Positions 23,317 to 27,421 of a DNA stretch of 64,000 bases are shown here, in pieces. The DNA comes from Arcobacter arenosus (GTDB taxonomy: Bacteria; Campylobacterota; Campylobacteria; Campylobacterales; Arcobacteraceae): assembly GCF_005771535.1 (NCBI RefSeq), contig NZ_VANU01000001.1, forward strand, positions 744,001 to 808,000. The letters are read 5' to 3'. Under the pieces are notes generated by a model. It was not told the origin of the DNA. It ran no database searches and saw nothing but the letters and a program-made list of their open reading frames with translations. Numbering within the stretch: the first letter of the stretch is position 1; each line of letters begins with the position of its first letter. A program made the translations under genes and the position numbers.

Positions 23317-24162
23317 TCAAACAAACTTAAATAACATTAAACTAATTGACATAACAAACATCCCCAAAACTAAACCTGCAATCGTTGTATGGGCATTTCC
23401 ATAAACTCTAGCTGCTGGCAAAAGTTCATCAAAGGAGATATAAATCATAATTCCAGATACAAGTCCAAAAGTTATCCCTAAAGTAGCCTCTCCCATAAAA
23501 GGAAATAATATAAAAAATCCAATAATTGCCCCAATAGGTTCTGCAAAACCAGAAAGAGTTGCATACCAAAATGCTTTTTTCTTATTTCCAGTTGCATGAT
23601 AAATAGGTAAAGAGACTGCCATCCCTTCAGGAATATTATGAATAGCAATAGCCAAAGCGATGCTTAAACCAAGAGTTAAGTTATCTAAAGATGAAATAAA
23701 AGTTGCAAAACCTTCTGGAAAATTGTGAATACCTATTGCTAAAGCGGTAAAAACCCCTGTTCTTTTTAAACTATTATTTAAAACAACACTATTTTTATTA
23801 TTGGGTTTCAATTCTTGTAATTGTGCTTCTGATTTTGGTTCATGGGGATTAACATCTTTTGGAATAAGTCTATCAATAACTGCAATAATTGCAATACCTA
23901 AAAAAAAGCAAAATAATGCTAAAGATTCACCCTTTACTTCACTTGATACTAATTGAGTAAAAGACTCTGTAGATTTTTGTAGTATCTCCATAAATGATAC
24001 ATATATCATAACGCCAGCTGAAAAACCCAATCCTAAAGATAAGAATTTTTCAGTTTTTGTCTTTGAAAAAAATGCAATAACTGCACCAATACTTGTAGAA
24101 AGTCCTGCAAATAAGGTTAGTATGAAAGCTATAATATAATTTTCAAGACTCAAAGTTTCCAT
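23317..24162 (-). CDS. zupT: ZIP family metal transporter
   Basis: A 281-aa ZIP permease with eight predicted helices. The conserved metal-binding helices read 'ALAIGIHNFPEGFATF' and 'ALAIAIHNIPEGMAVSLPI', and a short polar loop lies between. ZupT-type proteins import zinc and other divalent metals at the inner membrane. It sits between the chemoreceptor and Dps genes; a link to the zinc ABC operon at 35-37.5 kb is possible but not shown. Confidence 0.88.
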   Translation of the reverse strand: METLSLENYIIAFILTLFAGLSTSIGAVIAFFSKTKTEKFLSLGLGFSAGVMIYVSFMEILQKSTESFTQLVSSEVKGESLALFCFFLGIAIIAVIDRLIPKDVNPHEPKSEAQLQELKPNNKNSVVLNNSLKRTGVFTALAIGIHNFPEGFATFISSLDNLTLGLSIALAIAIHNIPEGMAVSLPIYHATGNKKKAFWYATLSGFAEPIGAIIGFFILFPFMGEATLGITFGLVSGIMIYISFDELLPAARVYGNAHTTIAGLVLGMFVMSISLMLFKFV

Positions 24163-24182
24163 ACTAATCCTTAAAACTTAAA

Positions 24183-24620
24183 CTACTTAAGCATATTTCC
24201 AATCATCCATAAATCTTTTTCAAGTTTAGCAACTTTTTCATCAGCAAAAGCTTCTGTTGTTTTATCTCCTGCTTCTGATGCAATTTCACTTAAACTTCTA
24301 AATGATCTTAAAAAATAGTTGTAGTCATTTATAATTTTTTCAACAACCTCTTTAGACCTAAAATTTGAATTTGATTCTTCTTCTATATTTGTAGTGTTAA
24401 CTAAATCAGATAGAGTCAAATATGGTTTTTCACCTAATTGTAAAACCCTTTCTGCAAGTTCATCATACAAAGTTGAAAAGCTTGTATAAATCTCTTCTGT
24501 TTGATTATGTACAGGGAAGAAATCCATCCCTTCAATATTCCAGTGATAATTATGTACTTTTACATACATTGCATGGGCGTCTGATTGTAATTGTTTTAAA
24601 TTTTCTACTATATTTGCCAT
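24183..24620 (-). CDS. dps: Dps/ferritin-like DNA-protection protein
   Basis: A 145-aa four-helix protein with the Dps ferroxidase motif 'YNYHWNIEGMDFFPVHNQTEEIY' spread over helices A and B ('VHNYHWN', 'FYDELAER' equivalent 'LYDELAERVLQLG'). It binds iron and protects DNA under oxidative or starvation stress. ATG 24620 has AAGGA 7 bases upstream; the frame back to 24662 contains no better site. The next three small genes lie downstream on the same strand. Confidence 0.88.
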   Translation of the reverse strand: MANIVENLKQLQSDAHAMYVKVHNYHWNIEGMDFFPVHNQTEEIYTSFSTLYDELAERVLQLGEKPYLTLSDLVNTTNIEEESNSNFRSKEVVEKIINDYNYFLRSFRSLSEIASEAGDKTTEAFADEKVAKLEKDLWMIGNMLK

Positions 24621-24723
24621 CTTAAATCCTTTATTGTTTTCTAATGGATAATTTTTTTCCATTAGAAATTGTAAAGTATTTTAACTTAGACAAACATAAA
24701 TAAATTTTATTAGTGGATAAAAA

Positions 24724-24936
24724 TTATCTCTTACCCACTATTATTGCATCTGCAATTTTTGCAAGTTCTAATTGTGAAAGCTTTAATGTTTTTTCATTTA
24801 ATTCCTCTAAGGAAATTAAATTATCTTTCATAACCTGTGCAGCTAATTTGAAATCTTTTTTATATTTAACTAAATATAGTATTTGATGAATTAACTCATT
24901 GGTATTTAGATTATTTATAGTATTAGAACTCATCAT
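24724..24936 (-). CDS. Small helical protein, paralogue of the protein at 25148-25378
   Basis: About 70 aa, all-helical by composition, ending 'LSQLELAKIADAIIVGKR'. It aligns along its length with the product of 25148-25378 ('TNQIVELASKLISMR'), so the two arose by duplication. I recognise no family. It overlaps the end of the acidic gene by 14 bp; ATG 24936 follows GGA in the coding end of that gene. The longer Met-rich frame to 24978 is unlikely. Confidence 0.6.
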   Translation of the reverse strand: MMSSNTINNLNTNELIHQILYLVKYKKDFKLAAQVMKDNLISLEELNEKTLKLSQLELAKIADAIIVGKR

Positions 24937-25123
24937 CTTCATCCATATCATATTCATAGCTATAATCATCATAATCAACTGTGAAAACTTTTGGATAACC
25001 TAATTTTTCAAGTTCAATATCAATATTTTGTTCTGATATTCGATTTTTAACTTTTTCCATTATAAATTGAATATCATCTTCTTTGATATCGTTTGCTCTT
25101 AATTCATAAATAATTGAATCCAT
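24923..25123 (-). CDS. Small acidic protein
   Basis: A 66-aa protein with a charged helical N-terminal half and a very acidic, Tyr-rich tail ('VDYDDYSYEYDMDEDDEF'). No family recognised. AGGAAAGG precedes the ATG. It lies between the two paralogous small helical proteins, suggesting one three-gene unit. Confidence 0.6.
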   Translation of the reverse strand: MDSIIYELRANDIKEDDIQFIMEKVKNRISEQNIDIELEKLGYPKVFTVDYDDYSYEYDMDEDDEF

Positions 25124-25147
25124 TTTACCTTTCCTAATATATCTTTA

Positions 25148-25378
25148 TTATCTCATAGAAATTAGCTTTGAGGCTAATTCAACAATCTGATTCGTTTTAA
25201 GTCGTGCTGTATTTCTAACTATATTTTCTATATTTAGATTATTTGCTAATATTAATTTTATTGCTGAGTCATAATCATTATAAAATTTTATATGATTTGT
25301 TATTTCATTAACCAATATCTGTACTGGCTCATCAAATATATAGTTAGATATTAAATCATCAATAGATCTAGTAACCAT
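25148..25378 (-). CDS. Small helical protein, paralogue of 24724-24936
   Basis: A 76-aa soluble helical protein (starts MVTRSIDDLISNYIF). The last 50 residues resemble those of the gene at 24724-24936. Its own ribosome site is weak (CTAAG), but a 13-codon ORF with a strong site ends 8 bases before its ATG, so it may rely on coupled re-initiation. No family recognised. Confidence 0.6.
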   Translation of the reverse strand: MVTRSIDDLISNYIFDEPVQILVNEITNHIKFYNDYDSAIKLILANNLNIENIVRNTARLKTNQIVELASKLISMR

Positions 25379-25386
25379 CTTAGGCT

Positions 25387-25428
25387 CTATAAATTGACAA
25401 ATAACATATGTAGATAACCTATTTTCAT
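25387..25428 (-). CDS. 13-codon upstream ORF
   Basis: ATG at 25426-25428 follows TTGGAG with 5-base spacing. It encodes MKIGYLHMLFVNL and stops with TAG at 25387-25389, 8 bases before the next start codon. The strong site on such a short frame, beside a weak site on the next gene, suggests a coupling uORF; it could also be chance. Confidence 0.35.
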   Translation of the reverse strand: MKIGYLHMLFVNL

Positions 25429-25497
25429 TTCTACTCCAATTAACTAAAAACTAAGGTTATTGTGTTAGTATAAAAACACTCAATTTTGGGTACATCA

Positions 25498-25552
25498 TTT
25501 CTGAAAATCTTAAAAAAATGCACGGCCAAATGCTTTGATAGGTTTTCAGAAA
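25498..25552 (-). ncRNA. Structured leader element, copy A
   Basis: A 10-bp perfect stem (25498-25507 with 25543-25552) encloses a 23-nt core (25519-25541) that recurs at 26441-26463 with two differences. Read on the minus strand it lies about 120 bases upstream of the small-protein gene at 25378. The core contains GCATTTGGCCGTGC, which can form a 3-bp stem with a GGCC-bearing loop. The stem sequence differs from copy B at the same relative place, which argues for RNA structure. Class unknown. Confidence 0.6.
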
Positions 25553-25662
25553 TTCTCATTTTAACTTTTAATTACATAATTATAATCTATAAAAAAAAGA
25601 AAAAATCTAAAAAAAAACTTAAAAAATAAGCAACACCTACCAAAGCCCTATTTCATGGGCTC

Positions 25663-26085
25663 TTACTGGGAATTTTTAGGGCTTGCAATCTGTTTATGCA
25701 AAGTTGCAAGATCTCCTAAAACCCAAATATTTGAAATCTTTTCATCTCTAAATTTAAAAAAAGATGCCCCATTGTATTTTATTCTATTATTAGAAGCTTC
25801 ATAATCGAATAGTTTACCACTATGAGTTCCATTATAAATAGCTCTTACAGCAATTGTTGCATTTTCCTCTAAAAGAATTTCAATTCCATGGTGCAAATTA
25901 GGTATACCTTTTAATATTGCATCCATATAATTTTCAAACTCTTTTTTACCTTTTGTATCGATATTCAAAGAACCATGAAACTCAATATCATCAGTGAAAA
26001 GCTCTTCAATCATCGCTTTTGACTTTTTATTCCATAGCTCTTCGTAATATTGTCTTACAAGTTTTTTATAGATGTTTGTTTTCAA
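25663..26085 (-). CDS. NTF2/SnoaL-like protein
   Basis: A 140-aa protein of the ester-cyclase/SnoaL-like fold: 'YYEELWNKKSKAMIEELFTDDIEFHGSL', 'FENYMDAILKGIPNLHHGIEILLEENATIAVRAIYNGTHSGKLF' (quoted from separate segments of the same region) and 'FFKFRDEKISNIWVLGD'. Such proteins include small isomerases, cyclases and proteins of unknown role, so no reaction is assigned. The start is TTG at 26085, 7 bases after AAGG; no ATG is available. It follows the Cys-rich protein gene by 9 bp. Confidence 0.7.
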   Translation of the reverse strand: MKTNIYKKLVRQYYEELWNKKSKAMIEELFTDDIEFHGSLNIDTKGKKEFENYMDAILKGIPNLHHGIEILLEENATIAVRAIYNGTHSGKLFDYEASNNRIKYNGASFFKFRDEKISNIWVLGDLATLHKQIASPKNSQ

Positions 26086-26094
26086 ATATTGACC

Positions 26095-26370
26095 TTATTG
26101 ATTACTATTTGATTCTTCTACTACTTCTTGTTCAACTTTTTCACTAGATTCATCTAATTCTTTATCAACTTTTTCATTACATTGATAAAATAAGTCTTCA
26201 CATTTTGCACCACACTCTTCTACATTCGTATTAGACTCTTCACATTTTACTAAACATTGTTCATAGCTTTCACTACATGCATTGTATTTATCTTCTAAAC
26301 TCATTTGCTCATCTTGAGCATAAGCAAAAGCTGAAATTAATAAAACAGATAATGCAATTTTTTTTAACAT
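26095..26370 (-). CDS. Small periplasmic Cys-rich protein with symmetric twin CX3C motif
   Basis: A 91-aa protein with a signal peptide (cut after about 'SAFAYA'). Six cysteines lie at 32, 39, 43, 53, 57 and 64, spaced X6-X3-X9-X3-X6: a symmetric helical-hairpin pattern with two CX3C pairs, followed by an acidic Glu/Ser/Val tail. Disulfide-stapled helices are likely in the periplasm. No named family recognised. ATG 26370 follows TGGAGAAT; the longer frame to 26451 is rejected. Copy B of the structured element lies upstream. Confidence 0.7.
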   Translation of the reverse strand: MLKKIALSVLLISAFAYAQDEQMSLEDKYNACSESYEQCLVKCEESNTNVEECGAKCEDLFYQCNEKVDKELDESSEKVEQEVVEESNSNQ

Positions 26371-26426
26371 TTTTATTCTCCAGTTGTTCACAACTAATAA
26401 TATAAACGTACCTTTAGTACAACAAA

Positions 26427-26473
26427 TAAAGAAATCAATTTGCACGGCCAAATGCTCTAATAGAGTTTCTTTA
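26427..26473 (-). ncRNA. Structured leader element, copy B
   Basis: An 8-bp perfect stem (26427-26434 with 26466-26473) encloses the same 23-nt core (26441-26463) as copy A, in the same orientation. It lies about 60 bases upstream of the Cys-rich protein gene. The stem sequence is unrelated to that of copy A but begins at nearly the same distance from the core, so the pairing rather than the sequence is kept. Confidence 0.6.
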
Positions 26474-26659
26474 AACTTTTATCGTTTTGAGAGCGAAATT
26501 ATAAATCAAAAAAAAATTAATTTTCTTAAAATTTTCTTAATTTATTTTCATTTAAAAAAAAGTGGCTTTTTTAGGCTTTTTATTTATAAAAAAATTTATT
26601 TATTGGATTTCTTTTTTTTATTTTTTCGATTTTTTTTGGGTAGATTTTTTTAGAATTTT

Positions 26660-27421
26660 TTATATTTTAGTTAGTATCTCTTTTGCTTTAATATAGCCTT
26701 GTTCTAAAACAAAATCAAAACTTTTAAAATCAAATAGTTTTATTTCTGAAATACTATCTATATTAATAAAAAAGTCTGCTCTTTTTTTTGCTCTTTTCAT
26801 TGCACTTTGGGTTAATATAAAAAGAGACCTTCTATGTAATGAGTCTTTTTTATGGGAAAAGTTTTTAGGTAGATTATTAACATTTACACTAATATTTGGA
26901 TAATTTAATTTATAGAGTTTTTTATTTGGTAAATTATCACTATATCCACCATCAACAAAAAACTTTTTATTTATCTCTATGGAAGAAAAATAAGGAAGCA
27001 AAGAACAAGAAGCTATAGTTGATTTAATCAAATCACCTTTTATATGGTATTCAGCTTTTCCTGTTTCAATATTTGTAACACATATTTGTATTGGTATTTT
27101 TTGTTCTTTATTTTTTATAAAAGCTCTTAGTTTTCTTTCTATTTTATTTAAACTAAGAATTGAATTAAATCTAAATTTAAAATTGAACAAGTCCCATTTG
27201 TTTATTGTAAAAAAAAACTCTTCTATCTCTTTTATGGAAAATCCATGGCCATATAATAAAGCAATAATTGCTCCTCCACTAGTGCCAGATATCATCTTTA
27301 CTTCATAATTGTTTTCTTCTAAATATTTAATTACACCCAATGAGGCGGCGGTTCTAATTCCACCACCTGAAAGGGTTAATGTTACTTCTTTTAAATTTAA
27401 ATCTTTTTTATCTTTTGCCAT
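26660..27421 (-). CDS. Patatin-like phospholipase/acyl hydrolase
   Basis: A 253-aa patatin domain: oxyanion loop 'LTLSGGGIRTAASLGV', nucleophile Ser in 'SGTSGGAIIALLYG', and the catalytic Asp in 'FVDGGYSDNLP'. It should hydrolyse acyl esters of lipids through a Ser-Asp dyad. No signal peptide is seen, so it is probably cytoplasmic or membrane-associated. The region upstream on this strand (27422-27490) is short and separates it from hcp. Confidence 0.85.
   Translation of the reverse strand: MAKDKKDLNLKEVTLTLSGGGIRTAASLGVIKYLEENNYEVKMISGTSGGAIIALLYGHGFSIKEIEEFFFTINKWDLFNFKFRFNSILSLNKIERKLRAFIKNKEQKIPIQICVTNIETGKAEYHIKGDLIKSTIASCSLLPYFSSIEINKKFFVDGGYSDNLPNKKLYKLNYPNISVNVNNLPKNFSHKKDSLHRRSLFILTQSAMKRAKKRADFFINIDSISEIKLFDFKSFDFVLEQGYIKAKEILTKI

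What the first reader, a model, noticed from the sequence alone, without database searches (positions are those of the whole stretch)
25498..26473. Two copies of an unrecognised structured RNA element with compensating stems
A 23-nt core (25519-25541; 26441-26463) is 21/23 identical in the two copies. Each is enclosed by a perfect stem of different sequence at nearly the same distance, the signature of selected RNA structure rather than a DNA site. Both are in leader position and the same orientation ahead of small genes of unknown role. The GGCC in the loop could form a kissing or pseudoknot contact. It does not match riboswitch cores I know.
Basis: partly seen in the sequence, partly recalled or inferred. 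Interest (0 to 1): 0.75.

Follow-up and report, generated by a model that had tools for sequence, protein, structure and literature searches.

The report
New structured RNA leader in Arcobacteraceae
Two neighbouring genes in this Arcobacter-like bacterium begin with the same previously uncatalogued folded RNA, whose shape but not stem sequence is kept in related species; it is probably an on/off or fine-tuning element for a small operon of unknown proteins, and what it senses is not known.

Summary
The 23-nt core is 21/23 identical in the two copies, each copy lies inside a perfect stem of different sequence, and both precede genes on the minus strand. The exact core occurs only at these two places in the genome. 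A covariance model finds 28 copies in 18 of 104 Arcobacteraceae genomes, plus one in another family of the order. Every copy lies in leader position of one gene neighbourhood: a small exported six-cysteine protein, a SnoaL-like protein and small helical proteins. The stems covary. The core resolves into a hairpin, GCAU[UUGGCC]GUGC, whose stem changes by compensation while the loop stays mostly UUGG(C/U)N. A second hairpin follows and is kept even where the first has been deleted; a weaker pairing frames the ribosome site. Rfam has no match. Tests did not support a kissing loop, an intramolecular pseudoknot, an intrinsic terminator, a CsrA-type GGA loop or a mobile repeat. Best reading: a 5'-UTR regulatory RNA whose hexaloop is read by an unidentified factor acting on translation or mRNA stability. 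Structure and gene association are well supported; mechanism and signal are inferred. It is a new member of a known kind (cis-regulatory leader RNA). A new riboswitch class is possible but unproven.

The parts
25579..25584 (-). Predicted -10 box (TATAAT, minus strand) of copy 1
   Evidence: Sequence; TATAAT after a T-rich stretch lies upstream of nearly every homologue; no transcript data
25497..25553 (-). Copy 1, P1 element: outer stem 25497-25507 with 25543-25553, asymmetric internal loop, terminal hairpin 25520-25533
   Evidence: CM hit 25460-25567, 95 bits, E 6e-15 (copy 1 was in the training set)
25520..25533 (-). Copy 1 core hairpin GCAU[UUGGCC]GUGC
   Evidence: covariation of its stem across 28 copies
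25476..25493 (-). Copy 1 P2 hairpin (GUACCC...GAGUGU, imperfect in this copy)
25428..25474 (-). Copy 1 candidate P4 pairing around the ribosome site: 25467-25474 (UUUAUACU) with 25428-25435 (AGUAGAAA), 7 of 8 pairs; GGAG at 25434-25437
   Evidence: Sequence; helix 2 in homologues; moderate support only
25387..25428 (-). 13-codon ORF after the copy 1 leader (MKIGYLHMLFVNL), probably a decayed remnant of the six-cysteine gene
   Evidence: similar truncated MLK... ORFs follow copy 1-type leaders in G054, G067 and G068; inference
25148..25378 (-). 76-aa small helical protein, first intact gene after copy 1; no family above Pfam cut-off
24923..25123 (-). 66-aa protein (IIYELRANDIKEDDI family), conserved neighbour
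   Evidence: no Pfam match
26498..26503 (-). Predicted -10 box (TATAAT, minus strand) of copy 2
26428..26472 (-). Copy 2, P1 element: outer stem 26428-26434 with 26466-26472, terminal hairpin 26442-26455
   Evidence: CM hit 26392-26489, 74.5 bits, E 5e-11 (also in the training set)
26442..26455 (-). Copy 2 core hairpin GCAU[UUGGCC]GUGC
26408..26420 (-). Copy 2 P2 hairpin (GUACU-AAA-GGUAC)
26382..26395 (-). Copy 2 P3 hairpin (AGUUGU-GA-ACAACU) directly before the ribosome site
26372..26406 (-). Copy 2 candidate P4: 26399-26406 with 26372-26379 (7 of 8 pairs) around GGAG at 26378-26381
   Evidence: moderate support
26095..26370 (-). Six-cysteine small exported protein (91 aa, C-x6-C-x3-C ... C-x3-C-x6-C), gene downstream of copy 2
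   Evidence: no Pfam or NCBIfam family
25663..26085 (-). SnoaL-like protein (PF07366, E 6e-27), second gene after copy 2

Best explanation
The two copies are 5'-untranslated leaders of two minus-strand operons. The RNA starts shortly after a TATAAT box and forms P1: a stem of free sequence (6-14 contiguous bp), an asymmetric internal loop, and a terminal hairpin of about 4 bp with a hexaloop UUGGCC. P2 follows, then P3 and a pairing that brackets the Shine-Dalgarno site, then the start codon. The conserved hexaloop, presented on a stem whose sequence does not matter, is probably the docking site of a trans-acting factor, most likely an RNA-binding protein. That factor would change translation or decay of the mRNA of the six-cysteine protein and the small helical proteins. 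Shown by comparative sequence: the fold, the orientation and the restriction to this gene neighbourhood. Inferred: that it is transcribed, that it regulates, that the loop is bound in trans, and that the effect is on translation or stability.
For: P1 and P2 pair counts: 80.8% of cells paired against 31-53% when slid by 1-3 columns; 23 double-sided changes against 10.2 in shuffles, 0 of 500 as high. The stem of the terminal hairpin is paired in 110 of 111 cells across 28 copies, with G-C to A-U, G-C to U-A, U-G to C-G and U-G to U-A changes, while the loop is UUGGCC in 20 of 28 and UUGGCG or UUGGUG in 4 more (most of these copies were found by the core sequence or a model built from it). Kept G-U pairs point to RNA rather than DNA. 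CM hits in 18 of 104 family genomes and one genome outside the family all lie in the same gene neighbourhood in leader orientation. P2 is found even where P1 is deleted. The pairing around the ribosome site has 91% of cells paired. No Rfam match. Complement to the loop within the leader is no better than chance, which leaves a trans-acting reader as the simplest use of a conserved loop.
Against: No transcript or expression data. P1 was lost by deletion in four species that keep P2 and the gene, and the core was lost in four more, so P1 is dispensable. In G084 the whole loop is inverted between the stem arms. Predicted access of the Shine-Dalgarno site is no different from shuffles on average (0.38 against 0.38), so a conserved sequestering switch is not shown. 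Several copies taken singly have P1 stems within the range of shuffles.
Confidence: 0.6

Rival explanations
1. A metabolite- or ion-sensing riboswitch: the P1 terminal hairpin and internal loop form a small aptamer and the P2/P3/P4 part is the expression platform.
For: Conserved short core on a covarying stem upstream of a platform-like region at the ribosome site; found only at one kind of gene, as many riboswitches are. In the window, copy 1 is followed on the same strand, after three small genes, by Dps-like and ZupT genes.
Against: The aptamer part is deleted in four species and remodelled in four others that keep the genes. P1 is small for a riboswitch and no pseudoknot was found. Site access is not biased. 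No biosynthesis or transport gene is shared by all loci.
Confidence: 0.15
2. A 5'-leader-derived small RNA: transcription pauses or stops after P2, giving an RNA of about 110 nt that pairs with other mRNAs through the UUGGCC loop.
For: P2 is followed by U-rich sequence in many species; two or three copies per genome share the same loop, as sibling sRNAs do.
Against: P2 has few G-C pairs and no terminator-like site was found in the window region. Every copy stays in front of the same gene set; a free sRNA would not need that. Loops such as UUUAGA and AGACC in orthologous leaders would change the targets.
Confidence: 0.1
3. An mRNA-stabilising or ribosome-standby 5' structure with no specific partner; any hairpin near the 5' end would do.
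For: In G079, G081, G082 and G085 a hairpin is present at the same place without the core; P1 arms are free in sequence.
Against: The loop sequence is kept across several genera and one other family although its stem changes; a generic hairpin needs no conserved loop.
Confidence: 0.22
4. A DNA-level element: a protein-binding inverted repeat or cruciform just downstream of the promoter.
For: The loop is inverted in G084, which a DNA site would tolerate; near-palindromic GCA...TGC.
Against: Loop lengths and arm sequences vary; U-G and G-U pairs are kept in the core stem; the orientation to the gene is the same in all other copies.
Confidence: 0.06

Closest known systems
CsrA-bound leader hairpins such as the flaA 5' UTR of Campylobacter jejuni (PMC4894983)
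   Same: Two short stem-loops with apical hexaloops in a 5' UTR of a related organism, supported by compensatory changes, one at the ribosome site
   Different: The CsrA loops carry ANGGA; the conserved loop here is UUGGCC/UUGGCG and no core-hairpin loop contains GGA
Translational riboswitch leaders and candidate motifs from genome-wide searches (Stav et al. 2019, PMC6429828, which analysed Arcobacter sp. L)
   Same: Conserved short core on covarying stems in front of one gene set
   Different: No ligand, no matching Rfam model. The exact core was not found in the genus I take to be that of A. butzleri (g2; taxonomy not checked); the supplement of that paper could not be read here
RNA thermometers of the fourU kind
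   Same: In some species U-rich sequence can pair with AGGAG next to the start codon
   Different: Not general: Shine-Dalgarno access is no lower than in shuffled leaders
mini-ykkC / guanidine-II riboswitch (recalled; tested only through the Rfam scan)
   Same: Small hairpins with conserved short loops that could kiss through a palindrome
   Different: Only one core hairpin per leader; several homologues have non-palindromic loops; no Rfam hit

Membership tests
Conserved structured cis-regulatory leader RNA | Covarying stems across species | tested here: met
Conserved structured cis-regulatory leader RNA | Consistent position and orientation upstream of one gene set | tested here: met
   the only further hit (G271, E 0.03) is inside coding sequence and taken as chance
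Conserved structured cis-regulatory leader RNA | Changes expression of the downstream gene | not testable with these tools
   No expression data held
Any of the 4227 Rfam 15 families | Score at or above gathering threshold | tested here: not met
   permissive search of 25000-26700 gave only chance-level matches
Riboswitch | Direct ligand binding that changes structure | not testable with these tools
   Needs in-line probing
CsrA-type binding site | ANGGA in the apical loop | tested here: not met
   Loop counts; motif from PMC4894983
Kissing-loop or pseudoknot element through GGCC | Loop self-complementary, or a complement conserved in the leader | tested here: not met
   UUGGCG, UUGGUG and AGACC homologues; complement search no better than shuffled loops
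Transcription attenuator with intrinsic terminator | G-C rich stem plus U run at P2 | tested here: not met
   None found in the window region; P2 usually has 2-3 G-C pairs. A weak terminator cannot be excluded
Mobile or dispersed repeat | Copies scattered without regard to genes | tested here: not met
   Two exact copies in the genome, both leaders
Small coding ORF / leader peptide | Frame with start conserved through the core | tested here: inconclusive
   Read by eye output: start codons and frames around the core are not kept across homologues; no systematic codon test was run

The most novel reading that the evidence does not exclude
A new riboswitch class, or a new protein-recognised hexaloop regulon, specific to Arcobacteraceae and a few relatives, that switches a possibly stress- or redox-linked operon (six-cysteine exported protein, SnoaL-like protein, small helical proteins; in this genome Dps-like and ZupT genes follow on the same strand) and that can be lost to give constitutive expression.
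Probability: 0.2. Interest if true: 0.75.

Novelty: new member of a known kind. Interest (0 to 1): 0.5.

Why it matters
Campylobacter and Helicobacter, relatives of this bacterium, lack Hfq (PMC3749233), and little is known of how such bacteria regulate genes through RNA. A lineage-specific leader with a conserved hexaloop on an exchangeable stem offers a ready assay for an unknown RNA reader. It also marks a small operon, with an unclassified six-cysteine exported protein, as worth studying.

Tried and rejected
Rfam at gathering and permissive thresholds: nothing. Exact-core scan of all genome contigs: the stretches found looked like chance hits and were not used further. GGCC kissing or pseudoknot: rejected. 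Pairing of GUGCA in the core with UGUAC of P2, checked by eye: not consistent. Alternative pairing of the P2 5' arm with the Shine-Dalgarno site, checked by eye: fits many species but fails in copy 2 of this genome and in G055, so not adopted. General Shine-Dalgarno sequestration: no bias against shuffles. Intrinsic terminator at P2: none. GTACTC...GAGTAC elsewhere in the genome: no match. CsrA loop motif: absent. T-box-like UGGN pairing with tRNA 3' ends: considered, but UCGGCC and UUUAGA loops break it and there is no specifier domain. S6:S18 leader motif, suggested by nearby RimK genes: dropped because the CCG is lost in UUGGCG homologues. Literature searches found no report of this element. 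(a literature search) failed on its wording and was not repeated. A structure prediction for the six-cysteine protein did not return in time.

Full report
OBSERVATION. On the plus strand, 25519-25541 and 26441-26463 agree at 21 of 23 bases. The 14-mer GCACGGCCAAATGC is present exactly twice in the window (0.04 expected at up to 2 mismatches) and exactly twice in the whole 3.13-Mb genome. The enclosing stems are real: 11 bp for copy 1 (25497-25507 with 25543-25553) and at least 7 bp for copy 2 (26428-26434 with 26466-26472). Taken singly, copy 1 stands out (p<0.003) and copy 2 hardly does (p=0.055) (folding z-scores -2.4 and -1.4). The case therefore rests on relatives.

RELATIVES. The exact core was found in 13 of 104 genomes of the family, often twice per genome. 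A covariance model made from 20 copies found 28 places in 18 genomes and one more in another family of the order. One further weak hit (G271, E 0.03) lies in coding sequence and is taken as chance. The other 29 places lie upstream, in the same orientation, of one gene neighbourhood: a six-cysteine small exported protein, a SnoaL-like protein (PF07366), small helical proteins of about 66-85 aa, and in several species RimK, a putative zinc protease and an M42 peptidase nearby. This excludes a scattered mobile repeat. The RNA sense is the minus strand of the window: a TATAAT box after a T-rich tract lies 25-56 nt before the core in the leaders measured, and the start codon of the six-cysteine gene 63-111 nt after it (the -10 picked by script for G072 is wrong, and G066 has two candidates).

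STRUCTURE. P1 and P2 covary: 80.8% of cells paired against 31-53% when the partner is slid by 1-3 columns, and 23 double-sided changes against 10.2 in shuffles, with 0 of 500 as high. The shuffle control in this tool keeps composition but not phylogeny, so this is strong but not formal proof. The conserved core is itself a hairpin, GCAU-UUGGCC-GUGC. Over 28 copies its four pairs are kept in 110 of 111 cells while changing type (G-C to A-U in G036 and G188, to U-A in G072; U-G to C-G in G061 and to U-A in G083; A-U to G-U in G035). The loop is UUGGCC in 20 copies, UUGGCG in 3, and UUGGUG, UCGGCC, UGGUC, AGACC and UUUAGA once each. Most of these copies were found by the core sequence or a model built from it, so loop conservation is partly ascertained; G072 and G083 were found through the protein and still show the loop. 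P2 (GUACUC...GAGUAC and variants such as GUAUUC/GAAUAC, UGCGCUU/AAGUGCA and CAUACUC/GAGUAUG) is present in nearly all leaders of the six-cysteine gene in the family, including four where P1 is deleted (G056, G057, G062, G063); it is not evident in genus g20. Downstream, UUUAUACU is complementary to AGUAUAAA between the Shine-Dalgarno site and the start codon: 91% of cells paired in an 18-sequence alignment, with the whole structure (P2 plus this helix) falling from 88.8% to 39-60% when slid. A second test with a looser definition gave only a small excess over shuffles (6.0 against 5.3), so this pairing is rated moderate.

WHAT IT IS NOT. No Rfam family matches at gathering threshold, nor convincingly at a permissive one. 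The loop has no conserved complement within the leader, and non-palindromic loops rule out a required GGCC kissing contact. P2 is not an intrinsic terminator by a simple scan of the window region. The Shine-Dalgarno site is not more hidden than in shuffled leaders (mean 0.38 against 0.38 unpaired). No core-hairpin loop carries the GGA that CsrA needs (motif in PMC4894983). By eye, frames and start codons around the core are not conserved; no systematic codon test was run.

HOW IT MOST LIKELY WORKS. Shown: a structured RNA element, kept in leader position of one operon type. Inferred: it is transcribed as part of the mRNA; the hexaloop on an exchangeable stem is read by a trans-acting factor, most likely a protein; the output is translation or decay of the message. 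A generic stabilising hairpin, a riboswitch, a leader-derived sRNA and a DNA site are the rivals, in that order. The loss of P1 in four species and its remodelling in four others suggest that regulation through P1 can be given up without losing the gene, which fits a tuning element better than an essential switch.

HISTORY AND ODDITIES. Copy 1-type leaders in G054, G067 and G068 are followed by a truncated MLK... ORF, and in this genome by a 13-codon ORF, which look like remnants of the six-cysteine gene. Copy 1 therefore probably arose by duplication of leader plus gene, with loss of the gene and capture of the next one (inference). In G084 the whole inner part is inverted between the P1 arms, and its sister G085 has lost the core. 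Inversion of a hairpin loop by template switching is a known mutational route (own knowledge), and here it suggests relaxed constraint in that genus.

NOVELTY. This is a new, apparently undescribed member of a known kind, the conserved cis-regulatory leader RNA. The five-genome survey of Stav et al. 2019 (PMC6429828) included Arcobacter sp. L. I take that strain's genus to be g2, where the exact core was not found, but I did not check the taxonomy, and the supplement could not be read here.

Noticed in passing
L159 (G084), bases about 1501-1596: The inner part of the P1 hairpin, core included, is inverted between perfect 12-bp arms relative to all other species; the sister genome G085 has lost the core.
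   Followed up: partly
window 26095-26370 (-): Small exported protein with a symmetric six-cysteine pattern (C-x6-C-x3-C ... C-x3-C-x6-C), found in 30 of 104 family genomes and in some other families of the order; no Pfam or NCBIfam family. Disulphide helical hairpin or metal binder are guesses.
   Followed up: partly
window 25387-25428 (-); L017, L021, L022: Short decayed ORFs after copy 1-type leaders, likely remnants of the six-cysteine gene after duplication of leader plus gene.
   Followed up: partly
leaders, just downstream of TATAAT: Conserved GTAGAATAAGGA right after the -10 box in most six-cysteine leaders (AGAATA in 25 of 30) but mostly not in copy 1-type leaders; could be an operator or a conserved 5' end.
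   Followed up: no
window 23317-24662 (-): Dps-like ferritin (24183-24662) and ZupT zinc transporter (23317-24162) lie downstream of copy 1 on the same strand, possibly in the same operon.
   Followed up: no
L008, L157, L012 and others: RimK, putative ATP-dependent zinc protease and M42 peptidase genes recur beside the SnoaL-like / six-cysteine genes in relatives.
   Followed up: partly
window 24724-25378 (-): The 76-aa and 84-aa helical proteins look by eye like paralogues of each other, without a Pfam family above cut-off.
   Followed up: no
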